From: Jiangella anatolica
GTDB taxonomy: Bacteria > Actinomycetota > Actinomycetes > Jiangellales > Jiangellaceae
Assembly (NCBI RefSeq): GCF_003236295.1
Contig: NZ_POTW01000073.1
Location: forward strand, 1 to 35,073
Direction: 5' to 3'
DNA: 35,073 nt
The position numbers were made by a program, and so were the translations under genes. The notes below the pieces were generated by a model, which saw only the letters and a list, made by a program, of their open reading frames with translations, was not told the origin of the DNA and did no database searches. Position 1 is the first letter of the stretch. Each line of letters opens with the position of its first letter. Shown in pieces: positions 15,750 through 32,992 of the stretch.

Positions 15750-17393
15750 TCACCGGGGTCGATCCGTGCGGTACACGGCGAGCTCACTGATCGCCGAGTA
15801 GTGCTCGGCGCCACCCGGCGTGCCGGTCAGACGGATGCCGTCGGCGTGAACCTCGGCGAAGGTCAAGTCGTAGACCCGCTGGCCGGTTGCTTCGGGACCG
15901 GGGTGGTAGGGCGGGTCGATGGTTGCCTCGGCGTCGAGCCAGCGCCCGGCGACGCGGACCTCGACGCGTGGCGGTTCGGCGAACCAGCCGCCGTTGAAGT
16001 CGTAGGGGCCGGTGACGTATCGCAGGTGGTTCATCGGCTGGCGACGGGCCCAGTGGTAGCCCCAGTGGTCGGTCGTCTTCGGCGTGCCGTTCCAGCTGTC
16101 CTCGCCCACATCTGTGCGCCCGTCGTTGAGGACGTCGAGCCGGCCGGACCGGGCGGCGGTGGCGACGGGGTACGCGCCGTTGTCCGGCGCTGCGAGGTTG
16201 GTGTCCGTCTGCGACAGGTCTCCGGTGTCGCCCGGGTCGGCGGCCGGGTCCAGGCGCAGGCGCCGCAGTGAGAAGCGGTAGGTACGCCCTTCGGCGGTCG
16301 ACGCCCGCCAGAACCAGTTCGACTGAAGCCACAGGTCGCGGCCGTCGATGCTGATGAACTTCGAGGGGATGGTCGTGGCGTAGCCGCCGTGCCGCGGCCC
16401 CGCCGCATCAGGGCCGAGCCACGGATGGGGCCCGAAGTCGCGCGTGAGGGCGTGCCGCCACGGCCCCCACGGCAGCGGTGCTTCGAACAGCTCGAGGGTG
16501 TACTCCGACCAGCTCGAGTAGAGGAACCGGTTCAGCGGTTCGTCGTAGACGACGCCGCCCTGGGCGATCACGGTGCCACCGCTGGGGCCTGCGACGGTCA
16601 GGCCGACGTGGCGGCGGGAGGCGTCGGCGAGCACGGGCACGCGGTCGCCGATGTCGGCGCTCCACACCGGTTCCCCGCGGTCCACGCCGCGGAAGAACGT
16701 CCAGGCCGCACGGTCCTGGACGGCCTGTGGGGCGACGCGGCCCAGGTACAGGTGCTGCGGGTCGGGCACGCAGCCGTCGTACGAGGTGCGCCAGTTGTGG
16801 TCCAGGCCGTAGGCGTAGACGTACGGGGGGCCGAACCGTTCGGCCAGCCGATTGCTGCGTCCGAAGTCGAGGAACATCACGGTCGTGAACATGTGCTCGG
16901 TGAACATCGGCTGTCGTGGTGCGTGCCACGTGCGCCCGTAGTCGTCCGAGCGCACGATCCCGGCCGCCGGCGCCTCGTTGAACGCACTCGCATCGATCCC
17001 GTAGCGCAGGTCCTGCACGGCGAGGTACAGCTCGTCCCGGCCGTCCCCGTTCCCGTCCACGGCGACCATCCCGGTCGGCTTGCTGTTGAAGTGGCCCGGA
17101 TCGGTCCACACCGGTGCGACGTCCCGCCCGGAGGCGAGACGTGCACCGGTGAGTCCCGTTGCCGGGGTGCCGTCGACCCGGTTGACGACGATGTCGGCCC
17201 ACGGCGCCGTGAGGTCGAAGCCGAGGCCGTCACCACAAGCGGTGTACAGGTGACCGTCGTCGGCCCAGGCGCTGGGCCAGAGATCGCCGTCGCTGTCAGT
17301 GCGGACCGACTCCGCGCCGTCCACATACGCGACGGCGAAGAACTCGGGCCGGTCGTCGTCGAGCGCCGGCGGTCTCGGTGTGCCAGTCGTCAC
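15750..17393 (-). CDS. Divergent DUF4185/GH183-like protein with discoidin-like C-terminal domain, no signal peptide
   Basis: A 547-residue protein. The N-terminal half resembles the five-bladed-propeller plan of DUF4185 proteins: GDLWPSAWADDGHLYTACGD (residues 36-55) holds two Asp (37 and 55) 18 apart, the same spacing as the conserved pair in the upstream paralogue. KPTGMVAVDGNGDGRDELYL, VRSDDYGRTW and SEYTLELFEAPLPWGPW are sialidase- or propeller-like strands. The last 95 residues (VEVRVAGRWLDAEA to AISELAVYRTD) look like an F5/8-type carbohydrate-binding domain. The GTG at 17391-17393 overlaps the previous stop as GTGA, and no signal peptide follows, so it should be cytoplasmic. It is last in the glycan operon. 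A D-arabinan-related hydrolase role is inferred; function may differ. Confidence 0.7.
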   Translation of the reverse strand: MTTGTPRPPALDDDRPEFFAVAYVDGAESVRTDSDGDLWPSAWADDGHLYTACGDGLGFDLTAPWADIVVNRVDGTPATGLTGARLASGRDVAPVWTDPGHFNSKPTGMVAVDGNGDGRDELYLAVQDLRYGIDASAFNEAPAAGIVRSDDYGRTWHAPRQPMFTEHMFTTVMFLDFGRSNRLAERFGPPYVYAYGLDHNWRTSYDGCVPDPQHLYLGRVAPQAVQDRAAWTFFRGVDRGEPVWSADIGDRVPVLADASRRHVGLTVAGPSGGTVIAQGGVVYDEPLNRFLYSSWSEYTLELFEAPLPWGPWRHALTRDFGPHPWLGPDAAGPRHGGYATTIPSKFISIDGRDLWLQSNWFWRASTAEGRTYRFSLRRLRLDPAADPGDTGDLSQTDTNLAAPDNGAYPVATAARSGRLDVLNDGRTDVGEDSWNGTPKTTDHWGYHWARRQPMNHLRYVTGPYDFNGGWFAEPPRVEVRVAGRWLDAEATIDPPYHPGPEATGQRVYDLTFAEVHADGIRLTGTPGGAEHYSAISELAVYRTDRPR

Positions 17394-18904
17394 GGCGCCT
17401 CGACGACGGCGTAGTCGTCCACCTGGACCCACATGTCGCCGTTGTCCGTCCAGATCCCGGTGAACACCTCCACCGCGGTGTTGGCTCCGCTGTTGAAAGG
17501 AACCGTGAACCGGGTCCATGGCCCGACCGAGGCGAAGTTCGCCTCAGCGATGGGCGGCCCGCCCACGGAACGGACGCCGACGAAGCCGTTGTCGTTGTTG
17601 GGCGACGTGCGCAGCCAGGCCGTCAGGACGTAGTCGGTGCCGGGGGTCACCGCGACCTCCTGGTGGATGTCGTGCCAGCCGGAGTTGTAGCGCACGAAGC
17701 CGTTGCGGTCGCCACTGAAACCCCAGATGTTCGCGTCGATCCCGCAGTTGCCGGTGCACGACCACGGGGCCGACGCACCGGACCCGGGTTGCCGTTCGAA
17801 GCTCGGATCGGCCACGAGGTTGGGTCGGATCACGTTCGCGTCGGCGTCGAGTGACACCCGCATCAGGTAGACGTTGTATGGGTTCCACTGCGACAGCGCG
17901 AAGTACAGGTCGTCGCCGCTGGACCATGGATGGATGAACCCTCCGTAGGGACCCGGGTGGTCGGCGTCGCTGACGATGACCTGCGGCGAGCTCCACGGGC
18001 CGGTCGGGGTGTCGGCGGAGCGCAGCACGATGTCGGTGCCGCGCATGTAGACCGTGATCCACTTGTCGCGTTCGGCGTCGTAGCGCACAGAGAGTTCCGC
18101 CACTGGACCGTCGAGCACCGCCGTCGCCTGGGTGTCCGCGCCGCTGACCCACGCTGAGCCGTTCCAGTAGGTGTAGGCGCTCTTGGTGAGCACGGATCCT
18201 TCGGGAACGCGGGCCAGGAAGGCGTCGTCGTTGCGGCCGTTCGGGGTGGCGAACAGATAGACGTGGCCGCCGTGGCGGACGAAGGCGCCCATCTGGAACT
18301 TGTTGGTGCCAGTCGGGTTGTCCCAGGTGGGCGCCCCGGCGGTCACCCAGTTCTCGCCGTTGTCGTCGGAGTACGCGATCGCCGCGTAGTTCGTGTCCCA
18401 CTCGCCGGGTGGTCCCCAGTGCCGCACAGACATGTACGCCATGTACTGGCGGGACCCGACCGAGACTCCGGCCGTGGGGATGACGGTCATCTCGACACCG
18501 TCGACCTTGAGGCTGGGGATGAGCTCCTTCGCGTGCCCGGGGGAGTCCGTCGCGGCGCTGTCGAAGGTCATGCCGTTCGACAGGTCGGTGTCGGAGCTAC
18601 GCAGTAGCACGTTGCTGCGCCAGTCGTTGCCGTTGCCTCCGGGCGGCGTCCACGTGTTGCCGAAGGTGTCGCCGAACGCAGCGAGGATCTCGCCGTCACC
18701 GTTGTCCCACATCACGCCCAGGTCGGTCCCGTAGATGCCCCACGCGGTGTGCGTGCTGCTCTGCGAGCCCGGTCCGGTGATCTTGCCGACCATGACGGCC
18801 AGTGTGGGCGCGGTCGTCGCCGTCGCGGGCGTCGCACCGAGCGACGCTGCCATAGTGATGGTTGCGGCCGCCGCGGCCAGCAGCTTCGTCACTCGGCCGC
18901 TCAC
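17390..18904 (-). CDS. Secreted DUF4185 (GH183-type) putative endo-D-arabinanase with C-terminal carbohydrate-binding module
   Basis: A 504-residue exported enzyme. A signal peptide ends near residue 29 (hydrophobic core LLAAAAATITMAASLG, cleavage near ATA). The DUF4185 domain spans about 35-345: GTDLGVMWDNGDGEILAAFG (residues 59-78), followed by DTFG, gives Asp61 and Asp79, the candidate catalytic pair. DWRSNVLLRSSDTDL, SVRHWGPPGEWDTNYAAIAY and SQWNPYNVYLMR are shared with the lipoprotein paralogue at 22239. A CBM4/9-like jelly roll (PNLVADPSFE to QVDDYAVVE, about 355-504) follows. DUF4185 is CAZy family GH183, endo-acting on mycobacterial D-arabinan. The GTG overlaps the stop of the binding-protein gene (GTGA). 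The substrate is inferred from family and neighbours. Confidence 0.82.
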   Translation of the reverse strand: MSGRVTKLLAAAAATITMAASLGATPATATTAPTLAVMVGKITGPGSQSSTHTAWGIYGTDLGVMWDNGDGEILAAFGDTFGNTWTPPGGNGNDWRSNVLLRSSDTDLSNGMTFDSAATDSPGHAKELIPSLKVDGVEMTVIPTAGVSVGSRQYMAYMSVRHWGPPGEWDTNYAAIAYSDDNGENWVTAGAPTWDNPTGTNKFQMGAFVRHGGHVYLFATPNGRNDDAFLARVPEGSVLTKSAYTYWNGSAWVSGADTQATAVLDGPVAELSVRYDAERDKWITVYMRGTDIVLRSADTPTGPWSSPQVIVSDADHPGPYGGFIHPWSSGDDLYFALSQWNPYNVYLMRVSLDADANVIRPNLVADPSFERQPGSGASAPWSCTGNCGIDANIWGFSGDRNGFVRYNSGWHDIHQEVAVTPGTDYVLTAWLRTSPNNDNGFVGVRSVGGPPIAEANFASVGPWTRFTVPFNSGANTAVEVFTGIWTDNGDMWVQVDDYAVVEAP

Positions 18905-20253
18905 GAGCCGGCCCTCGCGGCCAGGTCGAGGTCCGTGATCGCCTTGGTGATCTCGGCGTCGGCCGTGGTCAACGCTTCCTCGATGTCCTGCCCCTGCAAC
19001 GCCTTCTCCATCGCCGTGCCGAAGGCCAGGCTCACCGCCCAGTCGTAGGTCGGCTCGAGCACCTGGTAGGGAACGACCCGCTCGGTCATGACGTCGAGCC
19101 ACGGGTTGACTGACGTGTCCTCCTCCGCGATGGCGGCGGCGACGCTGATCCGCGGTGAGAACTTCGTGAAGTTGGTGTCCTTGAAGTAGTCGAGCACGAC
19201 GTCGACGTCCTCGGCCAGCAACCACGAGATGGCCTGAGCCGCCTCCTCCGGGTGGTCGGACTTGGCGTCCACCCCGAGCGACCAGCCGCCCAGCGTGCCC
19301 GTCGGCTTGGTGAGGTCGCCGTCCAGGGACGGCAACGGCGCCACCCGCAGGTCGTCGATCATGTCCGGGTAGTCCAGAAGGAGCTGGCTGATCGCCCACG
19401 ACCCCGACGCCTGCATGGCCAGCTTGCCCTCACCCAGCGGCGCGGCGTCGCCGTACGGCGAGAGCGCCTGTGGCGCGATCAGTCCGTCCTCGGCCAGCCG
19501 CTGGTAGGTCTCCAGCAACGCCAGGTAGCCGTCGTCGGAGGCCAGGGACGTCGACCAGTCGTCACTGATCGGAAGGTGCCCGGTGGCGTTGACCTGCAGA
19601 CCCCAGGTGGTCCAGGACAGTTCCACGCCGTTCTGCGCGGTCTGGAACGGGACGATGTCGGGGTGCGCCGCCTTCAAGGCGGCAGCAGCGGCGATCAGGT
19701 CGTCCCAGGACTCCGGCGGTGCATCCGGGTCGAGGCCGGCCGCTTCGAATAGATCCGCCCGGTAGAACAGCAGCGAGCTGGGCTCGTACAGCATCGGATA
19801 GGCGTAGCGCTCGCCGTCCTCGGTCACCGCGTCGAGGAACCGCTCCTCGAGGTCCTCCCAGCCATCCGCCGCGATGACGTCGCCGATGGGGGCCAGCTCA
19901 CCGTTGCGTGCCCGGGGGAGCACCTCGGAGTAGTTCAGGGTGTAGAGGTCCGGCGCGGTGCCGGCCGCCTGGGCGGCCTTCATCTTCTGGTCCCACGCGT
20001 CGCCGGGCACGACGGTGAGCCTGATCTGGACGTCGTCGTGCGCGGCGTTGAACGCCTCGACCTTCTCCTTGTACCAGGCGTTGTCCGCGTCGCTGAACTT
20101 GTCCTGCCACATCTCGAGGACGACGGCACCGTCCTCGCCGGCGTCCTCCTCGTCCGCTGACTGCCCTGGGGTGCCGCTGCCGCAGGCCGCGACGAGGAGC
20201 GCGGCGGCCGCCGCCGTCAACGCTCCGGTGACGTGACGTCTGATGGTGCGCAT
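18901..20253 (-). CDS. Carbohydrate ABC transporter substrate-binding lipoprotein (family 1)
   Basis: A 450-residue extracellular sugar-binding protein, anchored by lipid at Cys24 of the lipobox LVAAC after a basic n-region (MRTIRRH). The mature part begins with an acidic linker and then VLEMWQDKFSDADNAWYKEK, typical of family-1 solute receptors. APDLYTLNYSEVLPRARNGE, YAYPMLYEPSSLLFYRADLF and GKLAMQASGSWAISQLLLDYP are standard ligand-cleft segments. A good AAGGAGG site precedes the ATG. It follows its two permeases and is followed by, and coupled to, a GH183 gene, so it should bind oligosaccharides freed by that enzyme, probably D-arabino-oligosaccharides. Placing the receptor after the permeases is the reverse of the usual order. 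Confidence 0.92.
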   Translation of the reverse strand: MRTIRRHVTGALTAAAAALLVAACGSGTPGQSADEEDAGEDGAVVLEMWQDKFSDADNAWYKEKVEAFNAAHDDVQIRLTVVPGDAWDQKMKAAQAAGTAPDLYTLNYSEVLPRARNGELAPIGDVIAADGWEDLEERFLDAVTEDGERYAYPMLYEPSSLLFYRADLFEAAGLDPDAPPESWDDLIAAAAALKAAHPDIVPFQTAQNGVELSWTTWGLQVNATGHLPISDDWSTSLASDDGYLALLETYQRLAEDGLIAPQALSPYGDAAPLGEGKLAMQASGSWAISQLLLDYPDMIDDLRVAPLPSLDGDLTKPTGTLGGWSLGVDAKSDHPEEAAQAISWLLAEDVDVVLDYFKDTNFTKFSPRISVAAAIAEEDTSVNPWLDVMTERVVPYQVLEPTYDWAVSLAFGTAMEKALQGQDIEEALTTADAEITKAITDLDLAARAGS

Positions 20254-20274
20254 GGTCCGTCCTCCTTGAGGGAC

Positions 20275-21189
20275 TCACTTCAAGCCTGAGATCTTGATGC
20301 CGCCGATGATGAAGCGCTGGAAGATCAGGAACAGGACGATCACCGGCAGGGCGGCGAGGGTGGAGCCGGCCATGAGCAGACCGAGCTCGGTGGAGCGTTC
20401 CGACCGGAACGTGGCGAGGTACTGCTGTATCTGGAACAGGTCCGGGCTGGTGATCGTCATGATCGGCCAGACGTAGGAGTTCCAGAAGGCGAGGAACGAC
20501 GTCATGCCCACAACCACGAAGACCGGCTTGGACATCGGCAGGAAGATGTGGCGGTAGATCTGCCACCGGCTGGCCCCGTCGAGCAGCGCCGCCTCCTCCA
20601 GCGCCAATGGGACGTTCAGGTAGTACTGGCGCAGGAAGAACACATGAGCGGCCGACGCGGCCCCCGGCAGCACCAGTACCGCGAGGGTGTCGAGCATCCG
20701 CAGTCGTGTGACGACGATGAACGACGTCAGCAGGATCGCCATGCCCGGGATGAACATCGTCGTGATCACCACGACCCACAGCGTTCGTTTGAAGGAGAAC
20801 TCGAGCCGGGCGAAGGCGTACGCGCCGATCGAGTTGACGGCCAGGCTCAGCGCCGCGAACAGGACGGCGCCGAGGAAGCTGACGCCCAGCGACCGGACGA
20901 AGGCGTCGTCCTGGAGGATCTGGGTGTAGTTCTGCCACTGCCAGACCTCGGGGAAGAACTGGAAGGGCGTGCGGACGACCTCCGTCTTTGTCTTGAATCC
21001 TGAGATGGCCATCCATGCCAGCGGGAACAGCGCGGCGGCGATGATCGTCGCCGCGAAGATCAGACGAAGGACGAAGCCCATCGGGCCGCCCTGCCGGCGT
21101 GAGCGGCGTCGGAGGGACGGCCTGGAGCGATCGGTCGCCGAGGCGGCTCCGGACGCGACCGGAGGTGGTTGTACGGCCGTGGACATCAT
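20275..21189 (-). CDS. Carbohydrate ABC transporter permease (MalG-like)
   Basis: A 304-residue inner-membrane permease. Six hydrophobic segments are visible, the first at about residues 38-60 after an Arg-rich cytoplasmic tail (RRRSRRQGG). The ATPase-docking EAA loop reads EEAALLDGASRWQIYRHIFLP (about 205-225). The start is the first of two adjacent ATGs; at 21189 it overlaps the previous permease stop as ATGA. The stop lies 21 bp before the binding-protein gene. It pairs with the MalF-like subunit at 21186 to form the pore. No ATPase gene exists in the locus, so a shared MsiK-type ATPase encoded elsewhere is expected. Confidence 0.93.
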   Translation of the reverse strand: MMSTAVQPPPVASGAASATDRSRPSLRRRSRRQGGPMGFVLRLIFAATIIAAALFPLAWMAISGFKTKTEVVRTPFQFFPEVWQWQNYTQILQDDAFVRSLGVSFLGAVLFAALSLAVNSIGAYAFARLEFSFKRTLWVVVITTMFIPGMAILLTSFIVVTRLRMLDTLAVLVLPGAASAAHVFFLRQYYLNVPLALEEAALLDGASRWQIYRHIFLPMSKPVFVVVGMTSFLAFWNSYVWPIMTITSPDLFQIQQYLATFRSERSTELGLLMAGSTLAALPVIVLFLIFQRFIIGGIKISGLK

Positions 21190-22136
21190 CCGTCGACCGC
21201 CTTGTCCGAGTTCAGCAGCCGGAAGATGACCGCCGAGATCGACCCGAGAACGATGAAGAGCAGGAACGCGCCGGCGATCGAGGTGCCGACGAAGGTGTCG
21301 GTCCGGAAGTGGTTGAACAGGTACAGGTTGGGCAGCAGAGTGGAGTCGAGAGGCCCGCCGTTGGTCATGATCAGCGGCAGCTCGAACTGCTGGATGGCCG
21401 CGGTGAAGCCGGCGATCAGCAGATACAGGATGATGTTCTTGAGCAGCGGGATCGTGATGTAGAAGGTCCGCTGGAACCAGTTGGCCCCCTCCAGTTCCGC
21501 TGCCTCGTAGTAGCTCTGCGGGATGTCGAGGAGCCCTGCGAGCATGATGAGCGCCGAGATGCCCAGACCGAGCCACACGGCTGGCGCCGCGATCGCCGGC
21601 AACGCGGTGCGCACGTCGGCGATCCAGGCCTGTGGCTCCATCCCGAACAGGCCGACGAACCAGTTGAGCACCCCGCCGCTGTATTGGTAGATCAGCAGGA
21701 AGATCACCGACGTGATGACACCGGAGATGACGGTGGGGATGTAGATCGCGACCTTCAGGGCCGTGCCCAGCCTCGCCCCGACGGCTTTGACCAGGCTGGC
21801 GAACAGGAACGAGATCACCAGGATCGCCGGCACGACCATCAGCGCGAACACAAGGCTGCGGACGATCGACGACCGGAACTGCGGATCCGTGAGCACGTTG
21901 CTGAAGTTCTTCCAGCCGACGAAGCGCGACTCCTGGTAGAAGCTCCAATCGAAGAAGCTCAGGTACGCCGAGTAGACCATCGGCCAGATCACGAAGATGC
22001 CGAGCAGGATCACCAGTGGCGCCAGCATGAGGAACGCGAGCTTGTTGTCCTTGCGGCTCGGCGGGCGTCGTCGCGAATCCCGGCGCTCGGAGCCCACCGC
22101 GGCACCAGGCGGCAGGCTCGCTGTCGGAACGGTCAT
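21186..22136 (-). CDS. Carbohydrate ABC transporter permease (MalF/UgpA-like)
   Basis: A 316-residue permease, the first transporter gene of this operon. After a charged tail (about 1-30), six membrane spans run from AFLMLAPLVILLGIFVIWPM to the C-terminus. The EAA motif is YYEAAELEGANWFQRTFYITIP (about 226-247). The ATG at 22134-22136 shares one base with the stop of a 21-codon leader ORF (TGATG) that carries the strong ribosome site, so its translation is probably coupled to that leader. It works with the MalG-like subunit and the receptor at 18901 to import sugar. Confidence 0.93.
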   Translation of the reverse strand: MTVPTASLPPGAAVGSERRDSRRRPPSRKDNKLAFLMLAPLVILLGIFVIWPMVYSAYLSFFDWSFYQESRFVGWKNFSNVLTDPQFRSSIVRSLVFALMVVPAILVISFLFASLVKAVGARLGTALKVAIYIPTVISGVITSVIFLLIYQYSGGVLNWFVGLFGMEPQAWIADVRTALPAIAAPAVWLGLGISALIMLAGLLDIPQSYYEAAELEGANWFQRTFYITIPLLKNIILYLLIAGFTAAIQQFELPLIMTNGGPLDSTLLPNLYLFNHFRTDTFVGTSIAGAFLLFIVLGSISAVIFRLLNSDKAVDG

Positions 22137-22201
22137 CAGAACCCCGCACCCGCCTCGGCGGCCGGCGCTGCCAGCGATACGCGATCTCCGTTGAAGCGCA
22201 T
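22136..22201 (-). CDS. 21-residue leader ORF coupled to the permease gene
   Basis: ATG at 22199-22201 follows a near-perfect AAGGAGG ribosome site (22208-22214 on the minus strand). The 21-codon frame begins MRFNGDRVSLAAPAA and ends GAGF, with its TGA overlapping the permease ATG as TGATG. The permease itself has no separate ribosome site. The peptide has no known relative; its likely role is to let ribosomes re-initiate at the permease, or to regulate that step. It could also be a chance relic of a duplicated start region. Confidence 0.4.
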   Translation of the reverse strand: MRFNGDRVSLAAPAAEAGAGF

Positions 22202-22227
22202 CCGATCCTCCTTGATCGACGATGGCG
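22196..22227 (-). repeat. Copy 1 of a 32-bp duplicated translation-start region
   Basis: These 32 bp match 32468-32499 at 30 positions in the same orientation. They carry the AAGGAGG ribosome site and the first codons (ATG CGC) of the leader ORF upstream of the permease. The other copy carries those of the second binding-protein gene. Confidence 0.85.
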
Positions 22228-22238
22228 TTGACGCAGGA

Positions 22239-23393
22239 TCAGCCGGCCCGCTCGAGCTCGGCTCGGTAGAGGTAGACGTTGTAGGGACCCCAGAGCGAGA
22301 GGGTGAAGTAGACGGTGCGGCCGCCGTCCTCGACGTAGCGCGGGTTGAGGTACGGCGAGTAGAGGCCCGGGTGCTCCGCGCCGTTGAGCAGCTCGAGCGG
22401 TTCGCCCCACGGCCCCCACGGCGTGAGTCCCTCGCGGACGTAGGCGTTGCCGGCGTCGGAGTACGTCATGATCCATCGATCGAGGTAGTCGTTGAACATC
22501 ACCGACAACTCGCCGATGGTGCCGTCGACGATGGTCGCCGCCTGGTTCATGTCGTCGGACCAGACGGGTCGGCCCTCGGCATCGGTGCCGGTGAAGTAGC
22601 GATACGAGGACGGGTCCTCGACCGTCTCCTGGGCGGCCGGCACCTTCATGAGCTGGACCCCGCCGAAGCGTCCGGCCGGGATGGCCCAGAAGTACACGTG
22701 GTCGACCTCGTCCTCGGCCACGTGCGCCGTGGCCACCTGGATGAAGTTCGAGTCACCCGGCCAGCGCGGCGCGTCGAGTACCTCCCAGGTCTGGCCGTCG
22801 TCGGTCGACTTCGCCAACGCCGAGTAGTTGGCATCCCACTCGCCCGGGGCGCCCCAGTGGTGGACCGACATGAAGTACAGGTACATGGCCCCGTCGACCG
22901 CGAAACCGTAGGTCGGGATCTTGGTGACCTCGCCCGTTCCATCCGGTTCGTGCAGTCCGGGGACGATCTCCGCGGCGAGCCCCACCTCGTCGGTGATCCA
23001 GCCGTCGAACGCGATGCCGTCGCTGGCGTCGTCGTCAGTGCTGAACGCCATGACGTTGGACCGCCAGAACCCGCCCTGGCCGCCGTAGGAGTCAGGATCG
23101 CGCTCCCCGAAGGTGTCGCCGAACGCGAAGTAGGTGCGGTCGCCGACGTTCACCATCGACCCGAGATCAGTGCCGGCCACGGCGACCGCGGCGGTGTCGT
23201 TGACGGCGTCGGGGCCGGTCAGCTGAGCGACCTCGGTCACGTCCCGAACTCCTGTGAGGACGAACGGGCGCTCGGCGGCGTCGTCGGCGACGCTGACCGG
23301 TGCCGTGTCGCGGCCGGCGTCCTCGGAGCAAGCAGCCGCGGCGGCGGCCAGCGTCAGCGCGGCTGCTCCCGCCGTCACCCTCGCCGCCCTCAC
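22239..23393 (-). CDS. DUF4185 (GH183-type) lipoprotein, putative surface endo-D-arabinanase
   Basis: A 384-residue protein with lipoprotein signal (TLAAAAAAC, lipidated Cys22), so it should sit on the outer face of the membrane. The DUF4185 domain fills the rest: GTDLG (Asp76) and FGDTFG (Asp93) supply the paired acids of the family, followed by FWRSNVMAFSTDDDASDGIAF, SVHHWGAPGEWDANYSALAK and LSLWGPYNVYLYRAEL. The same blocks occur in the secreted paralogue at 17390, but the carbohydrate-binding module is missing. GH183 enzymes cleave inside D-arabinan chains. The GTG at 23391-23393 has no ribosome site but overlaps the stop of a 34-codon leader (GTGA). It is the first full gene of the operon behind operator 23519-23532. 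Confidence 0.82.
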   Translation of the reverse strand: MRAARVTAGAAALTLAAAAAACSEDAGRDTAPVSVADDAAERPFVLTGVRDVTEVAQLTGPDAVNDTAAVAVAGTDLGSMVNVGDRTYFAFGDTFGERDPDSYGGQGGFWRSNVMAFSTDDDASDGIAFDGWITDEVGLAAEIVPGLHEPDGTGEVTKIPTYGFAVDGAMYLYFMSVHHWGAPGEWDANYSALAKSTDDGQTWEVLDAPRWPGDSNFIQVATAHVAEDEVDHVYFWAIPAGRFGGVQLMKVPAAQETVEDPSSYRYFTGTDAEGRPVWSDDMNQAATIVDGTIGELSVMFNDYLDRWIMTYSDAGNAYVREGLTPWGPWGEPLELLNGAEHPGLYSPYLNPRYVEDGGRTVYFTLSLWGPYNVYLYRAELERAG

Positions 23394-23494
23394 GACTCGG
23401 CCGGTCCGCGCGGCGGACGTTCGGGCGGCATCGATGTGTTCAGGGAGGTCGAGCGGCTGTCGCCGCGACGCGATCTCTTGCCCGGCATCGCCAT
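23390..23494 (-). CDS. 34-residue leader ORF ahead of the DUF4185 lipoprotein gene
   Basis: An ATG at 23492-23494 follows a strong GGAGG ribosome site. The 34-codon frame begins MAMPGKRSRRGDSRS and ends RPPRGPAES, with its TGA sharing four bases with the GTG of the lipoprotein gene. It lies within the 5' leader after promoter and operator. The lipoprotein gene has no ribosome site of its own, which supports a coupling role. No homologue is known to me. Confidence 0.45.
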   Translation of the reverse strand: MAMPGKRSRRGDSRSTSLNTSMPPERPPRGPAES

Positions 23495-23518
23495 CGAACC
23501 TCCGGGATACGCTTGATG

Positions 23519-23563
23519 AGAAATCGATTTCTGGAGGCTATAGCCGAAGGCGCCCCTCGTCAA
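23519..23563 (-). promoter_or_regulatory. Promoter and LacI-type operator of the GH183/ABC transporter operon
   Basis: On the minus strand, TTGACG (23558-23563) and TAGCCT (23535-23540) form a -35/-10 pair with a 17-bp spacer. Directly after it lies the 14-bp perfect palindrome AGAAATCGATTTCT (23519-23532), where the transcript would start. This is the classic position for LacI-family repression. The 12-bp core recurs at 32529-32540 and, with two changes, at 25829-25840. Confidence 0.75.
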
Positions 23564-23576: not shown

Positions 23577-24584
23577 TCAGTGACCTCGCGTGGACCCGCG
23601 CGCAAGGAGTGTCGGTGTCAGGACGATCTGCTGAGCGGGGCCGGGCCCACGTGCGGCACGGTTGGCCAGCAACTCGCCGGCCAATCGGCCGATCTCCGCG
23701 ACCGGCTGCTGGACGACCGACACCTGCGGAGCGACCATGCGCGTCCAGTGGTCGTCGTCGACGCCGATCAGGCCGACCTCGGCGCCGATGGCGATGCCTT
23801 CGGCCTGTAGGGCCTGGTAGGCGCCTTCGGTCAGCGGTCCGTTCGTCGCGAAGACGGCGTCGGGCAGGTCGCCCCCGCGCAAGATGGCGCGCAGAGCGGC
23901 CTCACCCCCTTCGGCGCGCAGGTTCGCCCGGCGGATCCACTTGCGTGCGATCGGCGCGCCGGCCTCGGACAGCCGTGCCCGGAAGCCCGCGAGCCGGTCC
24001 TCCGTCGTACTGACGTCGGACGGTCCCGTGATGCAGGCGATGCGCCGAAACCCCTGCTCGAGCAGGTGGTCAGCCGCCAGTCGTCCGGCCAGGCGATTGT
24101 CCACCATCACGGAGTCTCCGAGGTGATCGTGGACGCGGCGATCGATCACGACGGCCGGGATGTCGGCGGCGGTGCGCAGGTCGGACTCCACCTCCGAGGC
24201 GACCGCGATGACGAGTCCCGCCAGGTGCTGTGCTGCAGCGAGCCTGAGGTACTCGCTCTCGCGCGCCACCTGCTCGTCGCTGTTGCACAACACGACCGAG
24301 AACCCGCGATCGACGGCGACGCGTTCGATGGCGGCCACCACGCCGGTGAAGAACGGGTTCTGCACGTCAGACACGATGACTGCCCAGACGTCGGACACGC
24401 GTCGCCGGAGTGCCCGGCCGTTGCTGTTCGGGACGTAGCGGGTGTCCGCGGCCGCCTTGCGCACGCGGTCGGCCAGCTCCGGCGCGACGGTGCCGACGCC
24501 ATTGAGAACGCGGGACACCGTGGCCGGCGACACGCCGGCCGCCCGCGCCACATCGCTGATCGTCACCGCGCGTGCCGTGGTCAC
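23577..24584 (-). CDS. LacI-family transcriptional regulator of the glycan locus
   Basis: A 335-residue repressor. The HTH and hinge are textbook: VTISDVARAAGVSPATVSRV (residues 7-26), then LNGVGTV and the minor-groove hinge NSNGRALRRR. The periplasmic-binding-protein-like sensor follows: VWAVIVSDVQNPFFTGVVAA (about 66-85), AIERVAVDRGFSVVLCNSDE, then GLIGVDDDHWTRMVAPQVSVV and a C-terminal dimer face. It sits between GH172 and the GH183/transporter operon, beside three matching palindromes, so it most likely represses all three units until an arabino-oligosaccharide binds. The GTG at 24582-24584 is the family-consistent start. It is divergent from no gene; all neighbours run the same way. Confidence 0.94.
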   Translation of the reverse strand: MTTARAVTISDVARAAGVSPATVSRVLNGVGTVAPELADRVRKAAADTRYVPNSNGRALRRRVSDVWAVIVSDVQNPFFTGVVAAIERVAVDRGFSVVLCNSDEQVARESEYLRLAAAQHLAGLVIAVASEVESDLRTAADIPAVVIDRRVHDHLGDSVMVDNRLAGRLAADHLLEQGFRRIACITGPSDVSTTEDRLAGFRARLSEAGAPIARKWIRRANLRAEGGEAALRAILRGGDLPDAVFATNGPLTEGAYQALQAEGIAIGAEVGLIGVDDDHWTRMVAPQVSVVQQPVAEIGRLAGELLANRAARGPGPAQQIVLTPTLLARGSTRGH

Positions 24585-24656: not shown

Positions 24657-25754
<1,098 letters not shown>

Positions 25755-25828
25755 GGTGAGGTCTCCTTCGTCGGGCGGAGCGGTCGACACGGGACTGGTT
25801 CGGCTCCCTGGTCACGCCGCGGTCCTCA

Positions 25829-25881
25829 GCAATCGTTTTCCCAGAATGGGGAGGCTAGCCGCGTGCTCTTCCCGGCGTCAA
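25829..25881 (-). promoter_or_regulatory. Promoter and LacI-type operator of the GH172 gene
   Basis: Minus-strand TTGACG (25876-25881) and TAGCCT (25852-25857) with an 18-bp spacer are followed by GAAAACGATTGC (25829-25840), 10 of 12 matches to the palindromic operator. The -35 and -10 hexamers are identical to those of the GH183 operon promoter. Confidence 0.65.
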
Positions 25882-25884
25882 CAG

Positions 25885-26067
25885 GGTCGAACCGTCGACC
25901 GAGAATCGGTGGTGTCGCTTCCATGCTGTCTGCCACGGCCGCGACTTCACCCCATCGCTGGAGGGCATCAACGGCGCAATCCGCTCCCTCTGAGCGTCGG
26001 TGAGGACTCGCTCGCGAGATATGCCAGCAGCAAACCAGCCGTACACGCCCCGACTCAGAAGACACAC
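25885..26067 (-). mobile_element. IS5-family transposase remnant
   Basis: The minus-strand frame reads LTDAQRERIAPLMPSSDGV, then jumps to RPWQTAWKRHHRFSVDGS. These are two blocks of the N-terminal DUF4096 region of IS5-family transposases, normally separated by about 40 residues that are missing here. No DDE catalytic domain or terminal repeats follow. The relic fills the gap between GH116 and the GH172 promoter; the promoter -35 box lies at its downstream edge. Confidence 0.6.
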
Positions 26068-28575: not shown

Positions 28576-28597
28576 CGCCGTCCTTGGAGTCGTCGGA

Positions 28598-29293
28598 TCA
28601 GGGATCGGTGCGCCGACCGGGCGTGACGCCGAGCCCGCCGAGCGCCGTCCACGCGGCGCTGACCAGCACCACCGCGGCGACGCCCGGGACGACCAGGAGC
28701 AGCACCTGGAGCCGCAGCGCCAGCCAGGCCAGCAGCGCGGCGGCCACCCACCCGCCCAGCACCGGCACCGGCCGGCGGGCCGCGGCGAGGAACGCGACGA
28801 CCCAGACGTTGCGCCACGGCGCCGCGGGCCGGTCGAGGATCAGCGCGACGGCGGCGGGCGCCAGCAGCACGGCGTTGGCGGCGACGACGGACCCGGCCAG
28901 CGCCGGCGCCAGGGCCGCCGCCGACCCCGTCCGCCCGTACACCTCGAAGGCCACCAGCGTCAGCGCGACGGCGACGGTGGCCGTCCACACGACGGCGACG
29001 GCCCGCATCCACCCAGGGGTCCGCAGGTCGCGGGTCCGCACGTCGCCGTCGACCACCAGGCGCTGCGCGACGATCGTCAGGGCGACGAGCGCCGGGGCGC
29101 CCACCAGGCCGGCGACGGCCGTCATGACCAGCAGGTGCCCGCCGCTGAGCCGGCTCGCGGCGACGACGGCGACGAGCACCGGGACCGACGCGGCCAGCAC
29201 CCACGGCGCCCTGGGCCACAGCGCGCGGGCGCCGCGGCGCAGCCAGTCCTCCTCAGCGGCGGCGGCCACGAGTGCGATCGTCCGCATCGTCAC
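28598..29293 (-). CDS. Multi-pass membrane protein, possibly YesL/DUF624-like
   Basis: About 230 residues with roughly six hydrophobic segments: WVLAASVPVLVAVVAASRL, LLVMTAVAGLVGAPALVALT, AVAVVWTATVAVALTLVAFE, ALAGSVVAANAVLLAPAAVA, PVPVLGGWVAAALLAWLAL and LLLVVPGVAAVVLVSAAW. Its size and place just after sugar ABC permeases resemble YesL/DUF624 proteins, whose role is unknown. I saw no diagnostic motif, so the family call is tentative. The GTG at 29291-29293 overlaps the permease stop as GTGA; an ATG two codons later (29285-29287) is the alternative. It is followed after 22 bp by the GH116 gene. Confidence 0.65.
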   Translation of the reverse strand: MTMRTIALVAAAAEEDWLRRGARALWPRAPWVLAASVPVLVAVVAASRLSGGHLLVMTAVAGLVGAPALVALTIVAQRLVVDGDVRTRDLRTPGWMRAVAVVWTATVAVALTLVAFEVYGRTGSAAALAPALAGSVVAANAVLLAPAAVALILDRPAAPWRNVWVVAFLAAARRPVPVLGGWVAAALLAWLALRLQVLLLVVPGVAAVVLVSAAWTALGGLGVTPGRRTDP

Positions 29294-30186
29294 CCCCGCA
29301 GCCCGGCCGTCGCCACCGACGCGACGAAGTTGCGCTGGAAGGCGAGGAACAGGACGAGGACCGGGGCCACGACCATCGCGATGGCGGCGAACACGACGGC
29401 CGCAGGCGCGCCGCCCTGCCCGCTCTGCAGCGTCACCAGCCCCAGCGGCAGCGTCATCTTCTCCGGGCTGGAGATGAAGATCAGCGGCCCGAAGTAGTTG
29501 TTCCACGACGCCTGGAAGCCGAGGATCGCCAGTGCCGACAGCGCCGGGCCGGACAGTGGGACGAGCATCCGGAACAGGATCCACAGGTGCCCGGCGCCGT
29601 CGATGCGGGCCGCCTCGTCCAGCTCGCGCGGGATCGAGTTGAAGTACTGCCGCAGGAAGAAGATCGCGAACACGTTGATCAGCGCGGGCAGCCACAGCGA
29701 CGTCAGCGTGTCGACCAGGTTGAGGTTCCGCATCAGCACGAACACCGGGATGATCGTCAGCTGCGCGGGCACCATCAGCGCGCTCAGCATGACCACGAGC
29801 ATCTTGTCGCGCCCGGTGAACGACAGCCGCGAGAACGCATACGCCGCCAGGACGGCGACCAGCAGCGAGCCGCCGACGCTGATGACGGCGACGATGAGGC
29901 TGTTCAGCGCCATCCGCCCGAACGGCATCAGCTCCAGCACGCGGGAGTAGTTCTCCGTCGAGAACGGCGACGGCAGCCACTTGGGCGGCAGCGTGAACGC
30001 CTCGCCCGGCTCGGTGGCGCTCGCGGCGAACAGCCACACCAGTGGCGCGGCCATCAGCAGGCCGACCACCAGCACCAGGACGTCGAAGGCGATCGCGCCG
30101 GGACGCCGCCGCCGGCGCCTGCGCTCGCGCGGCCGTTCGCGCGGCCGGAGCAGGTCGTTCGCGTCCACGTCGACGCGCAGGCTCAT
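29290..30186 (-). CDS. Carbohydrate ABC transporter permease (MalG-like), second importer
   Basis: A 298-residue permease. A strongly basic cytoplasmic start (RPRERRRRRRRPGA, about 14-28) precedes six membrane spans, the first at about 30-55. The EAA loop is LDEAARIDGAGHLWILFRMLVP (about 192-213). The ATG overlaps the MalF-like stop as ATGA. With the subunit at 30183 and the receptor at 31115 it forms an importer distinct from the one at 18901-22136; sequence identity between the two sets is modest. Confidence 0.93.
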   Translation of the reverse strand: MSLRVDVDANDLLRPRERPRERRRRRRRPGAIAFDVLVLVVGLLMAAPLVWLFAASATEPGEAFTLPPKWLPSPFSTENYSRVLELMPFGRMALNSLIVAVISVGGSLLVAVLAAYAFSRLSFTGRDKMLVVMLSALMVPAQLTIIPVFVLMRNLNLVDTLTSLWLPALINVFAIFFLRQYFNSIPRELDEAARIDGAGHLWILFRMLVPLSGPALSALAILGFQASWNNYFGPLIFISSPEKMTLPLGLVTLQSGQGGAPAAVVFAAIAMVVAPVLVLFLAFQRNFVASVATAGLRG

Positions 30187-31118
30187 CGCTCGTACACCCA
30201 CTTCCGCGCGACCAGGAACTGCAGGCCGGTCACCGCCATGATCACGACGAACACCAGGATCGCGATGGCCGACGCGTAGCCGATCTGGAAGGCCTGGAAC
30301 CCGGTCTGGTACAGGAACATGACGATCGTCATCGTGGCGTCGTCGGGCCCGCCGCCGGTGATGATCTGGATCGGGTCGAAGATCTGGAACGCCCCGATGA
30401 ACGTGATGATGACGGCGAAGAACAGCACCGGCGACATCATCGGGACGGTCACGTGCCAGAAGACCTGCCACCGGTTCGCGCCGTCGGTCCGGGCCGCCTC
30501 GACCAGTTCGGACGGCACCGTCTGCAGGCCGGCCAGCATGATGACGAAGGTGAAGCCGATCGTGTACCAGAAGTCGATCCCGATGATCGCCGGCAGCGAC
30601 CAAGCCGGGTCCACGAACCAGTTCGGCGCGTCGATGCCGATCTTGTCCAGGTAGTACGCCACCAGCCCGAACGTCGGGTCGAGGACGTACTTCCACAGCA
30701 GCGCGACCGCCGCCCACGACAGCAGGTACGGGAAGAACACCGCACTGCGGGTGAAGTACGAGACGAACCGGTTCATCGGCCGGTTCACCGCCAGCGCCAG
30801 CAGCAGCCCGCCGAACACGTGCGTCACCACCGAGGCGAGCGAGAACAGGAACGTGTTCAGCAGCGCCTTCGGCAGCAGCGGGTCGGAGAACAACCGCCGG
30901 AAGTTCTCCAGGCCGACGTACTCGCGCGGCGTCAGCAGGTCCCACGAGTGGACGCTCAGGAAGATCGCGAACGCGAGCGGACCGGCGATGAAGACGAGGA
31001 ACAGCACCAGCGCCGGGCTGAGGAACGCCCAGCCGGCCAGCGCCTCGCGGCGGCGGGCGCGGCGCCGCGGCGGACTGTCCGTGCCGAGGGCGACCGGGGT
31101 GGCGACGCCGGCCGTCAT
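30183..31118 (-). CDS. Carbohydrate ABC transporter permease (MalF-like), second importer
   Basis: A 311-residue permease with an Arg-rich N-terminal tail (PPRRRARRREAL, about 16-27) and six spans starting at WAFLSPALVLFLVFIAGPLA. The EAA motif reads LVEAARTDGANRWQVFWHVTVP (about 210-231), and the family's GGGPDDATMTIVMFLY segment follows. The ATG at 31116-31118 overlaps the binding-protein stop as ATGA. Receptor, then MalF, then MalG is the usual order, unlike the first importer. Confidence 0.93.
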   Translation of the reverse strand: MTAGVATPVALGTDSPPRRRARRREALAGWAFLSPALVLFLVFIAGPLAFAIFLSVHSWDLLTPREYVGLENFRRLFSDPLLPKALLNTFLFSLASVVTHVFGGLLLALAVNRPMNRFVSYFTRSAVFFPYLLSWAAVALLWKYVLDPTFGLVAYYLDKIGIDAPNWFVDPAWSLPAIIGIDFWYTIGFTFVIMLAGLQTVPSELVEAARTDGANRWQVFWHVTVPMMSPVLFFAVIITFIGAFQIFDPIQIITGGGPDDATMTIVMFLYQTGFQAFQIGYASAIAILVFVVIMAVTGLQFLVARKWVYER

Positions 31119-32473
31119 AGCAGTCCGGCCAGTTCCTCGTTCGCCTGTGCCAGGGCCGCCTCGGGCGACTCGTTCCCGCTCAGCGCCTTGTCCCAGGCGT
31201 TGATCATCGCCGTCTGCACCTCGGCGCCGCGGTCCGGCGACGGCACCGGGGTGGCATAGGAGATGGCCTCCGACAGCGCCGTCGTCCCCTCGGGCGCGTT
31301 GTCGGTGAACGCGGGGCTGTTCGCGACGGACAGCCGGGCCGGGACGATGGTGCCGCCGATCGAGGCGTAGTACTCGCTCGCCTCCTTCGACATCATGAAC
31401 TTGATGAACGTCCAGGCGGCGTCCTTCTTCTCCGACGCCTTGGTGATCGGCCACGCGTCCCAGCCGACCGGCGAACCGGGCCCGGTCTTCTGCGGCATCG
31501 GCACGATGGCCATCTTGTCGACCAGCTCCAGCCGGCGCATGTCGATGACGGGCCAGCGGCCGCCCGCGATCGCCGCCAGCGTGCCCTTCGACAGCGCCTC
31601 GCCGGCGTCGAACGCGCCGCCGGGCTCGGGTGCGTACCCGTTGGCGATGAGGTCGCGGCAGAACTGCAGCGACTCGATCGACTGCGGCGTGTCGAACGTC
31701 GGCGTCGCCCAGTCCTCGTCCAGCGGCGAGCCGCCGTTTGTCAGCATCCACGGCATGATCGCGGTGAACGGGTCCGAGCCGATCGGCAGGATGAACACGC
31801 CGGCCGCCTTCAGCTGCTCGGCCGCGACCAGGAAGTCGTCCCACGTCCAGTCCGGCGCGGGCGGCGTGGCGCCGGCCGCCGCCCAGGTCTCGGTGTTGTA
31901 CCAGAAGCAGACGGTGTTGTAGCCGCCCGGGATGTAGTAGGTCTTCCCGTCGTGCGACGCGTACTTCGTGTTCCACTCGACGAGGTTCGGGTCGATGTCG
32001 GCGAAGTAGTCGTCGACGACGTCCTGGTCGCGCTCCATGTACGGCTCGAGCGGTTCCAGCAGGTCCTTCGACGCGAAGATCCGCTGCCCCTCGGTCGCGA
32101 TCTGGATGATGTCCGGCACCTGCCCGCCGGCGATCCGCGTCGCGACCGTGTTGGAGAAGTCGCCCCAGGTGTCCGCGGCGATGCCCTGGGCGCGCAGCTT
32201 GATGTCCGGCTCGACCTTGTTGAACTCGGCGAACAGCTTGTTGAACGCCTCCTGCTGGTTGGCGTCCCCGCGATACACGAACGTCAGGTTGTCGCCGCCA
32301 CCGCCACCGCCACCGCCGCCCCCGCCGCTGGTCGAGCCGGGGCTCTCACACCCGGCGACCGAGCCGAGCACCGGCACCGTCGCAGCCGCGCCCATCAGCT
32401 GCAGCAACCGCCGCCGCGACAGCGCGCCGTTGTCCCTTCCGGTGCTGGTCAGGTCTTCGCAGGTCATGCGCAT
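31115..32473 (-). CDS. Carbohydrate ABC transporter substrate-binding protein, Tat-type lipoprotein
   Basis: A 452-residue receptor. SRRRLLQLMG (from residue 19) is a twin-arginine signal and Cys42 of SVAGC the lipid site. Right after it comes a linker with eleven consecutive glycines. The ligand-binding fold follows: LTFVYRGDANQQEAFNKLFA, FNKVEPDIKLRAQGI, GGQVPDIIQIATEGQRIFAS, YYIPGGYNTVCFWYNTETWA, GTLAAIAGGRWPV and a C-terminal helix bundle. The ATG follows a strong AAGGAGG site within a 32-bp duplicated sequence. It heads an operon of receptor, two permeases, membrane protein and GH116, behind operator 32529-32541, so a sugar or oligosaccharide from the same glycan is the likely ligand. 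Confidence 0.92.
   Translation of the reverse strand: MRMTCEDLTSTGRDNGALSRRRLLQLMGAAATVPVLGSVAGCESPGSTSGGGGGGGGGGGDNLTFVYRGDANQQEAFNKLFAEFNKVEPDIKLRAQGIAADTWGDFSNTVATRIAGGQVPDIIQIATEGQRIFASKDLLEPLEPYMERDQDVVDDYFADIDPNLVEWNTKYASHDGKTYYIPGGYNTVCFWYNTETWAAAGATPPAPDWTWDDFLVAAEQLKAAGVFILPIGSDPFTAIMPWMLTNGGSPLDEDWATPTFDTPQSIESLQFCRDLIANGYAPEPGGAFDAGEALSKGTLAAIAGGRWPVIDMRRLELVDKMAIVPMPQKTGPGSPVGWDAWPITKASEKKDAAWTFIKFMMSKEASEYYASIGGTIVPARLSVANSPAFTDNAPEGTTALSEAISYATPVPSPDRGAEVQTAMINAWDKALSGNESPEAALAQANEELAGLL
32294..32326 (-). repeat. Eleven-glycine codon run (GCCACC-rich microsatellite)
   Basis: Eleven glycine codons in a row within the binding-protein gene, including three tandem GCCACC units (32297-32314). 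It encodes a flexible tether between the lipid anchor and the receptor and could vary in length by in-frame slippage. Confidence 0.85.
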
Positions 32474-32499: not shown

Positions 32500-32528
32500 A
32501 TGAGGGGTGGCGCCGGATCCGGGTATCG

Positions 32529-32576
32529 GAAATCGATTTCTGCGGAACGATATAACCGCCCGCGACCGGCCGTCAA
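32529..32576 (-). promoter_or_regulatory. Promoter and LacI-type operator of the second importer/GH116 operon
   Basis: Minus-strand TTGACG (32571-32576) and TATATC (32549-32554; 16-bp spacer) precede the palindrome GAAATCGATTTC (32529-32540). Including the preceding A, 13 bases are identical to the operator at 23519-23532. The position relative to the promoter is also the same. Confidence 0.75.
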
Positions 32577-32992
32577 TAGGGGAGTGTGGGCCTGGCGTTC
32601 GCTGCCGAGAGTTCGACGTAAGGAGCTGCCTAGTTGGCCGCCCCTTGCCGCCTATGGTCTTGGCCGCGCGTACCCGCGCCTCGAGTCCGCGCCTCTGTTG
32701 CTGATCTTTGCGCGTGGCTGGGGGCTTGGACCTGACCCGCAGGTCCGCGGCCAAGAGCGGCCAACTATCACGGGGACGGGAGAGAGCGGGCACTTGGACT
32801 GACCATCTGTCCCCTCTCGTCGGCGGGGGTTCAAGGTCTGGGTAGGTGGCCGCTGACTCAGAACCTCTACACGGACCGTGGTGTGGCGTCGGCTGCTACG
32901 GCGAGATCCTCGAACGAGCGAGGTGAATTGTGGTCGTCAAGTAGTCGTTCGAACTTGCGACGATGATCCACATGACCGCTTGACCTGCTGGT
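32577..32992. other. Gene-free stretch between the glycan locus and tRNA-Arg
   Basis: About 415 bp with no supported gene. A hairpin GGACCTG-N5-CAGGTCC occurs at 32728-32746 without a T-run, and GCGGCCAA is repeated beside it (from 32747 and 32757). Short frames have no recognisable motif. A small RNA cannot be excluded. Confidence 0.5.

What the first reader, a model, noticed from the sequence alone, without database searches (positions are those of the whole stretch)
15750..32580. A putative D-arabinan utilisation locus: GH183 + GH172 + GH116 with two ABC importers and one LacI regulator
Seen: two exported DUF4185 proteins and one divergent relative, one DUF2961 protein, one GH116 protein, two sets of sugar receptor plus permeases, and one LacI-type gene, all on one strand. 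Established: DUF4185 (GH183) contains endo-D-arabinanases, GH172 contains exo-alpha-D-arabinofuranosidases, and a GH116 enzyme acts as exo-beta-D-arabinofuranosidase; together they take apart mycobacterial arabinogalactan and lipoarabinomannan. Inference: this organism feeds on the arabinan of mycolic-acid bacteria. The layout is like a Gram-positive polysaccharide-utilisation locus: surface cleavage, oligosaccharide import, intracellular trimming. No D-arabinose isomerase or kinase is in the window.
Basis: partly seen in the sequence, partly recalled or inferred. Interest (0 to 1): 0.92.

Follow-up and report, generated by a model that had tools for sequence, protein, structure and literature searches.

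The report
D-arabinan utilisation gene cluster in Jiangella
An actinobacterium (Jiangella) carries, under what looks like one shared sugar-sensing switch, a published type of gene set for cutting up, importing and eating D-arabinan, the unusual sugar polymer found in the cell walls of mycobacteria and their relatives.

Summary
Thirteen minus-strand genes (15750-32473) encode two exported GH183 enzymes, a divergent GH183-like protein, GH172, GH116, two ABC importers without an ATPase, a membrane protein and a LacI regulator. The reading is well supported. GH172 and one GH183 are close to crystallised D-arabinan enzymes of Microbacterium arabinogalactanolyticum (63% and 54% identity), with the published key residues kept. 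GH116 keeps the four key residues but belongs to a clade beside that of the characterised enzyme. The host has no EmbC-type arabinosyltransferase, so recycling of its own wall is unlikely. This architecture was published in 2023: a new member of a known kind.

New here: (1) a fucose-isomerase-type gene and an FGGY kinase lie on another contig; (2) one palindrome sits just after a promoter in front of all three operons and of the isomerase; 55 of 64 exact sites in 22 family genomes lie within 6 kb of such genes, against 1 site in all for a scrambled palindrome; (3) in sister species these operons are scattered; (4) the divergent GH183-like protein belongs to a GH172-associated clade, apparently exported in most relatives but without a signal peptide here, with one essential Glu replaced by Gln. 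Activity, binding and growth are untested.

The parts
31115..32473 (-). g13: ABC substrate-binding protein 1 (Tat-type lipoprotein signal by eye)
   Evidence: PF13416 3.3e-33; first gene of the operator-bearing GH116 operon
30183..31118 (-). g12: ABC permease 1a
   Evidence: PF00528
29290..30186 (-). g11: ABC permease 1b
   Evidence: PF00528
28598..29293 (-). g10: probable membrane protein of unknown family, in the same operon in sister genomes
   Evidence: no Pfam or NCBIfam match; orthologue between permease and GH116 in L120, L121, L122 and L137
26068..28575 (-). g9: GH116, no signal peptide, predicted exo-beta-D-arabinofuranosidase
   Evidence: PF12215 + PF04685; best PDB match ExoMA2 8ic6; E396, H421, R458, D539 match E431, H446, R483, D557; separate clade beside ExoMA2
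24657..25790 (-). g8: GH172, no signal peptide, predicted exo-alpha-D-arabinofuranosidase
   Evidence: PF11175 1.1e-92; 63% identical to ExoMA1 8ic8; N270 = ExoMA1 N253; tree
23577..24584 (-). g7: LacI-family regulator
   Evidence: PF00356 + PF13377
22239..23393 (-). g6: GH183 lipoprotein, predicted endo-D-arabinanase
   Evidence: PF13810 5.5e-85; EndoMA1 match 3.7e-52; catalytic D, D, E invariant in A3
21186..22136 (-). g5: ABC permease 2a
   Evidence: PF00528; relatives of 52-67% identity in 9 of 80 GH172 loci
20275..21189 (-). g4: ABC permease 2b
   Evidence: PF00528
18901..20253 (-). g3: ABC substrate-binding lipoprotein 2 (lipobox by eye)
   Evidence: PF01547 8.4e-37
17390..18904 (-). g2: secreted GH183 with C-terminal domain like the D-arabinan-binding domain of EndoMA1, predicted endo-D-arabinanase
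   Evidence: PF13810 8.6e-121; EndoMA1 8hhv E 7.9e-167; 254 of 468 aligned residues identical, 16 of 17 functional residues
15750..17393 (-). g1: divergent GH183-like protein with CBM32-like C-terminal domain, no signal peptide here
32528..32576 (-). promoter-like TTGACG-18-TATCGT and operator-like AGAAATCGATTTCC of the GH116 operon
25828..25881 (-). promoter-like TTGACG-18-TAGCCT and operator variant GGAAAACGATTGCT in front of GH172-LacI
23519..23563 (-). promoter-like TTGACG-17-TAGCCT and operator-like AGAAATCGATTTCT in front of the GH183-ABC2-GH183-g1 operon

Best explanation
It is a Gram-positive-type D-arabinan utilisation locus of a Jiangella species. Inferred mechanism: the secreted GH183 g2 (with its arabinan-binding domain) and the lipoprotein GH183 g6 cut alpha-D-arabinan outside the cell. 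Two ABC importers (g13-g12-g11 and g3-g5-g4), probably served by an ATPase encoded elsewhere, take up the oligosaccharides. Cytosolic GH172 (g8) and GH116 (g9) trim alpha- and beta-linked D-arabinofuranose. The isomerase and kinase on contig C245 then convert D-arabinose to D-ribulose and D-ribulose-5-phosphate. LacI g7, and/or its paralogue on C245, represses all four promoters by binding RGMAATCGATTKCY just after the -10 box until an arabino-sugar inducer appears. The divergent g1 acts on imported oligosaccharides in the cytosol. Shown by computation: gene families, residue conservation, gene order, operator distribution. Inferred: every activity, transport substrate, DNA binding and the inducer.
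For: PDB matches of g2, g6, g8 and g9 to the three crystallised D-arabinan enzymes of one published PUL, with residues conserved and the GH172 tree. Published PUL of the same make-up, with GH183, GH116 and SBP genes induced by D-arabinose and mycobacterial cell wall extract (PMC10509167, Results and Discussion read). FucI-type isomerase plus FGGY kinase on C245, next to ABC, GH172 and GH183 genes in sister genomes G006, G009, G012, G014. Operator: the own genome has 7 sites at <=1 mismatch, 5 of them in these two loci; in 22 family genomes 55 of 64 exact sites lie within 6 kb of such genes, stretches that cover at most 0.72% of 137 Mb; a scrambled palindrome has 1 site in the 22 genomes; promoter box upstream at 12 of 13 sites tried, 0 hits in 1000 shuffles for each of the 13. 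No EmbC-family gene in the genome.
Against: GH116 g9 is not in ExoMA2's own clade; the GH116 of this genome that groups with ExoMA2 sits elsewhere (C111) near a GH32 gene and without the operator. ExoMA1-type GH172 is widespread without GH183 nearby: 15 of 80 loci had a GH183 (44% or more identical to g2 or g6) in the fetched flank, often cut short by contig ends, so GH172 alone proves little. In sister genomes G005, G012 and G014 the GH116 operon is at a different place from the GH172/GH183 genes, so the adjacency in the window rests on one draft assembly. No ATPase gene in the cluster. Of the two other operator-like sites in the genome, the one on C187 precedes a GH10 (xylanase-family) gene and the one on C204 lies between convergent genes. 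The C245 site 50694 has no promoter box. LacI, FucI and FGGY families have many substrates; the kinase reached no NCBIfam cut-off.
Confidence: 0.85

Rival explanations
1. The locus recycles or remodels the organism's own D-arabinan, as proposed for the mycobacterial GH183 enzymes AraH1 and AraH2.
For: GH183 enzymes are conserved in arabinan-making mycobacteria (PMC10115798).
Against: No EmbC-family arabinosyltransferase in the genome, while the same search rings in Corynebacterium glutamicum among the 14 control genomes; importers plus isomerase and kinase point to catabolism.
Confidence: 0.03
2. The target is a D-arabinofuranose glycan not from mycolic-acid bacteria, such as pilin or O-antigen glycans with D-Araf.
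For: GH172 and a subset of GH183 enzymes also cut alpha-1,5-D-Araf oligosaccharides of Pseudomonas aeruginosa PA7 pili (PMC10115798).
Against: g2 keeps all 9 ligand residues listed for the EndoMA1 arabinan-binding domain; two endo enzymes and a GH116 for beta-linked termini suit a branched polymer (inference).
Confidence: 0.1
3. Two unrelated loci lie side by side: a GH116 operon for another beta-glycan, and a D-arabinan operon.
For: The GH116 operon is separate in G005, G012 and G014, and g9 is outside ExoMA2's clade.
Against: The same operator precedes the GH116 operon and the GH183, GH172 and isomerase genes, also where they are unlinked. Isoptericola (L085) and Actinocrispum (L076) carry a g9-type GH116 near GH172 and a Fucose_iso_C gene, L085 also an FGGY kinase.
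Confidence: 0.1

Closest known systems
D-arabinan degradation PUL of Microbacterium arabinogalactanolyticum (MIAR_33170-33320; EndoMA1, EndoMA2, ExoMA1, ExoMA2; PMC10509167)
   Same: exported GH183, GH172 and GH116 without signal sequence, ABC importer, isomerase and kinase; g2 and g8 are close relatives of EndoMA1 and ExoMA1
   Different: two ABC importers; three operons; isomerase and kinase on another contig but behind the same operator; GH116 from a neighbouring clade; a divergent GH183-like protein without signal peptide; the words LacI, regulator and operator do not occur in that paper's main text
Dysgonomonas gadei PUL42 (PMC10115798)
   Same: GH183, GH172, a fucose isomerase, and a putative GH116 (the last noted in PMC10509167)
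   Different: Bacteroidota PUL; its GH172c belongs to the other branch of the tree
aFFase1 of Bifidobacterium dentium (GH172, PMC8605356)
   Same: GH172 family and catalytic Glu residues
   Different: alpha-D-fructofuranosidase with Gly299 where ExoMA1 has Asn253 (PMC10509167) and g8 has Asn270

Membership tests
GH183 (g2) | DUF4185 with D33 nucleophile, D51 acid/base, E243 | tested here: met
   D61, D79, E270
GH183 (g6) | DUF4185 with the same three acidic residues | tested here: met
   columns D61, D79, E270 invariant in the 22-sequence alignment A3 that holds g6
GH183 (g1) | third acidic residue E243 (E243Q nearly abolishes EndoMA1 activity, PMC10509167) | tested here: not met
   Q278, invariant in the 21 sequences of its alignment A2; pairing with g2 E270 in the hhalign alignment
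GH183 (g1) | common fold and descent with GH183 | tested here: met
   hhalign 99.0%, E 3.4e-18; EndoMA1 is the top structural match, Z 30.1, rmsd 2.6 A over 284 residues; the next rows, at about Z 20-21, hold GH43-type folds and the GH183 enzyme AraH2 alike; D37 and D55 invariant and 18 apart, as D33 and D51
GH172 exo-alpha-D-arabinofuranosidase | catalytic Glu pair and Asn253 (Gly299 in aFFase1) | tested here: met
   E240, E262, N270 (the Glu pair identified from the WGEG and GTGTED motifs shared with aFFase1 and DgGH172c); tree on the ExoMA1 side
GH116, ExoMA2 type (subfamily 4) | catalytic E431 and D557, recognition H446 and R483 | tested here: met
   E396, D539, H421, R458, with a 9-residue insert after the Glu region; but the His and Arg columns are the same in all 31 rows, so they discriminate little
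GH116, ExoMA2 type (subfamily 4) | falls in the clade of ExoMA2 | tested here: not met
   own 12-row clade with 100% SH-aLRT, 38% identical to ExoMA2; ExoMA2 is in another clade (quick tree, 24 rows). Whether both lie in the published subfamily 4 was not tested
Gram-positive D-arabinan PUL | exported GH183, GH172 and GH116 without signal, ABC importer in one cluster | tested here: met
Gram-positive D-arabinan PUL | isomerase and kinase in the same cluster | tested here: not met
   none seen among the window's ORFs; candidates on C245
Gram-positive D-arabinan PUL | induction by D-arabinose or mycobacterial cell wall | not testable with these tools
   needs expression data
LacI regulon | LacI regulator with a shared palindromic operator at the promoters | tested here: met
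   by sequence only; binding not testable here

The most novel reading that the evidence does not exclude
The g1 clade is a distinct enzyme group derived from GH183 that has changed its active site (essential Glu to Gln; EndoMA1's stacking Trp138 apparently lost, Tyr293 kept) and its specificity. It works next to GH172 on a D-arabinan substructure, and in some lineages, this one among them, it has moved into the cytosol to process imported oligosaccharides under a LacI regulon that holds the whole scattered pathway together.
Probability: 0.35. Interest if true: 0.6.

Novelty: new member of a known kind. Interest (0 to 1): 0.43.

Why it matters
D-arabinan is a signature polymer of mycobacterial and corynebacterial envelopes, and enzymes that cut it are tools for its analysis. 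The locus extends the known system to Jiangella. It gives a testable operator and regulator for the pathway (none is named in the main text of the Microbacterium paper), places a candidate isomerase and kinase, and points to a divergent GH183-like clade and a second GH116 clade worth assaying.

Tried and rejected
Genomic island at the tRNA-Arg (32989-33064): its 3' end is not repeated elsewhere in the window at up to 3 mismatches, so not supported. A relic operator: the own-genome site C245:50694 lies just beyond the LacI gene, where sister G006 has the promoter of its SBP-permease-permease-GH172-GH183 operon, and I first read it as a scar; but the two sites do not align and it has no promoter box, so this is not claimed. 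A sample of 396 genomes of the phylum found g1 in one, the own genome, but only 3 candidates per genome were scored there, so this is weak evidence of rarity; 14 of 80 GH172 loci held a g1-like gene. ARAGORN's tRNA-Ser at 28674-28766 lies inside g10 and Rfam did not find it at its gathering score: treated as false. The DUF4185-like proteins on C234, C51 and C111 are below the Pfam cut-off and were not taken as GH183. Literature: searches for Jiangella + arabinan (0 papers), D-arabinan + GH183 (4 papers), endo-D-arabinanase (4 papers), D-arabinan/LacI/DUF4185 combinations (46 papers, 15 listed) and two wider ones showed, in the listings, no paper on a regulator of such a locus; subscription journals are mostly not held.

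What I read: PMC10509167 Results and Discussion whole; PMC10115798 parts 1-2 of 3 of Results and the Discussion; PMC8605356 passages only; the others as search listings. Supplementary trees of those papers were not seen, so GH183 sub-clades were not matched to theirs; the sequences of EndoMA2 and of the two uncharacterised Microbacterium GH183 proteins were not at hand. No GH183 tree was built.

Selections: the gene list held GH183 hits above 100 bits, 18 of the 19 GH172 hits (one partial, G017, left out), the 15 isomerases, and the GH116 hits without the C256-like group (about 43% identity). Of the 9 sites not near these genes, those in G017 and G021 were not looked at. One search holds 21 g1-like sequences, L057 (frame broken) left out. 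One search used 28 chosen loci (38 rows), one search dropped 8 near-duplicate or broken rows, tried 13 chosen sites. The promoter rule was set after seeing the sites. Gene calls in other loci come from my own simple GC3 caller, which missed genes in places, LacI genes among them.
Full report
What is there. The window is a whole 35-kb contig (C227) of a 7.0-Mb, 256-contig genome. The genus is Jiangella: genome G009, given as same genus, has a contig of 220,978 bases, the length of a contig of J. endophytica, and G012, also same genus, has contigs of 61,342 and 28,420 bases, the lengths of two contigs of J. muralis.

Enzymes. g2 matches EndoMA1 (PDB 8hhv) at E 7.9e-167: 254 of 468 aligned residues are identical, and 16 of the 17 functional residues that I took from PMC10509167 (three catalytic, five further active-site, nine in the arabinan-binding domain; the exception is L292 to P). 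g6 matches EndoMA1 at 3.7e-52 and has the three acidic residues. g8 matches ExoMA1 (8ic8) at 2.9e-148, with 219 of 349 residues identical and Asn270 at the place of ExoMA1 Asn253, which PMC10509167 holds responsible for arabinose over fructose specificity. In a tree of 38 GH172 rows g8 lies in a 30-row clade with ExoMA1, apart from aFFase1, 4kq7 and DgGH172c (quick method, a long-branch warning was printed). g9 matches ExoMA2 (8ic6) at 2.3e-112; its E396, H421, R458 and D539 correspond to E431, H446, R483 and D557. Against a simple reading, g9 sits in its own 12-row clade (100% SH-aLRT), 38% identical to ExoMA2, which is in another clade; ExoMA2's sister row in that tree is a (cut) GH116 on C111 of the same genome, near a GH32 gene. 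So the beta-D-arabinofuranosidase assignment of g9 rests on residues and on regulation, not on clade.

The divergent member g1. It is borderline for Pfam DUF4185 (39.1 bits, cut-off 39.5) and has no PDB match by sequence. In an alignment of 21 sequences two Asp residues 18 apart are invariant (D37, D55), the spacing of D33 and D51 in EndoMA1, but Gln278 stands, also invariant, where EndoMA1 has Glu243. In the same comparison EndoMA1's Trp138 has no partner while Tyr293 has. The AlphaFold2 model (mean pLDDT 84.9) has EndoMA1 as clear best match (Z 30.1, rmsd 2.6 A, 284 residues); the next rows, at Z 20-21, hold GH43-type folds and the mycobacterial GH183 enzyme AraH2 alike. A CBM32 (2v72) is among the Foldseek matches, in line with a CBM32-like C-terminal domain. 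By eye, 17 of 21 relatives show a signal peptide (Tat in Jiangella G014, Sec in Streptomyces, a lipobox in Actinotalea); G005, G019 and apparently Ruania (L071) have none, like the window, and one is cut off. g1-like genes lie in the fetched flank of 14 of 80 GH172 loci. I therefore do not file g1 under GH183: it is a GH183 relative that may have a different specificity.

Pathway completion. One L-fucose-isomerase-type gene (PF02952, PF07881, PF07882) and an FGGY kinase lie together on C245 with a LacI gene 46% identical to g7. The isomerase was found in 15 of 22 family genomes, 12 of 12 of the genus. In G006, G009, G012 and G014 it sits beside ABC, GH172 and GH183 genes (in G006 the GH172 is of another type, 37% identical to g8). 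Outside the family, a second, remote Fucose_iso_C protein lies near GH172 in Isoptericola, Actinocrispum and Streptomyces, with an FGGY kinase in the first and last (the Streptomyces match is below the Pfam cut-off).

Regulation. A palindrome RGMAATCGATTKCY occurs exactly twice in the 7.0-Mb genome, both in this locus. With up to one mismatch there are 7 places: three in this locus, two on C245 (one of them ends 19 bases before the isomerase start), one on C187 in front of a GH10 gene and one on C204 between convergent genes. In the window there are 3 matches with up to 2 mismatches against 0.26 expected, and none of 100 shuffles had 3. Over 22 family genomes 64 exact sites were found, in 17 genomes; 55 lie within 6 kb of a listed GH183, GH172, GH116 or isomerase gene, 44 of 49 in the 12 Jiangella genomes, while those stretches cover at most 0.72% of the sequence. 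A scrambled palindrome of the same make-up has 1 site in the 22 genomes. Of the five Jiangella sites left over, the one in G013 precedes an ABC transporter and a large protein with a GH172 domain, three in G007 lie by sugar-ABC genes, and one in G007 is unclear. At 12 of 13 sites examined a TTGAC-17/18-TANNNT promoter lies 0-13 bases upstream, and none of 1000 shuffles per site gave one (rule set afterwards). The two LacI proteins have nearly the same recognition helix (VSPATVSRV and VSAATVSRV), so either or both may bind.

Modules. The GH116 operon (SBP-permease-permease-g10-GH116) is found as a unit, apart from GH172 and GH183, in G005, G012 and G014. The order GH172 ... GH183-ABC2-GH183-g1 is found in G005. 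ABC2-type permeases (g5 and g4 relatives at 52% or more) occurred in 9 of 80 GH172 loci, 7 of them with GH183, in Actinomycetota and Paenibacillus. So the window joins modules that also occur apart, held together by the operator. The adjacency itself rests on one draft assembly.

Verdict. The parts I did not find in print (searches, in-paper search) are the operator regulon, the isomerase and kinase in trans, the GH183-like clade without signal peptide and the second GH116 clade.

Noticed in passing
window 4510-10531 (+): Type III glutamine synthetase, GATase, GXGXG-domain and glutamate-synthase-domain genes followed by an N-methyltryptophan/sarcosine-oxidase-like FAD enzyme and a PuuR-like regulator: resembles (from memory) an N-methylglutamate pathway with a monomeric oxidase.
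   Followed up: partly
window about 11544-15294 (-): Urease gene cluster next to the arabinan locus; alpha subunit confirmed, the other subunits and accessory genes by eye only.
   Followed up: no
window 23494-23390 (-): Short 34-codon leader ORF with its own ribosome-binding site between the operator and g6, its TGA overlapping the GTG start of g6.
   Followed up: no
L119 (G000:C111) 10511-19901: A GH116 that groups with ExoMA2, near a GH32 gene and an SBP_bac_5-type (peptide-type) ABC transporter; no operator site on C111 at up to one mismatch.
   Followed up: partly
L136 (G006) 2818-10329 and L134 (G013) 437-7264: In sister species the same operator also lies by a ribose-type ABC transporter (by eye) with a 1247-aa GH116-like protein or a 1059-aa protein with a GH172 domain.
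   Followed up: partly
L034 6489-14367 and other Streptomyces loci: Streptomyces often have ExoMA1-type GH172 with an ABC importer and LacI; L034 also has an FGGY kinase and a weak Fucose_iso_C match. No GH183 of 44% or more was found within the fetched flanks; substrate unclear.
   Followed up: partly
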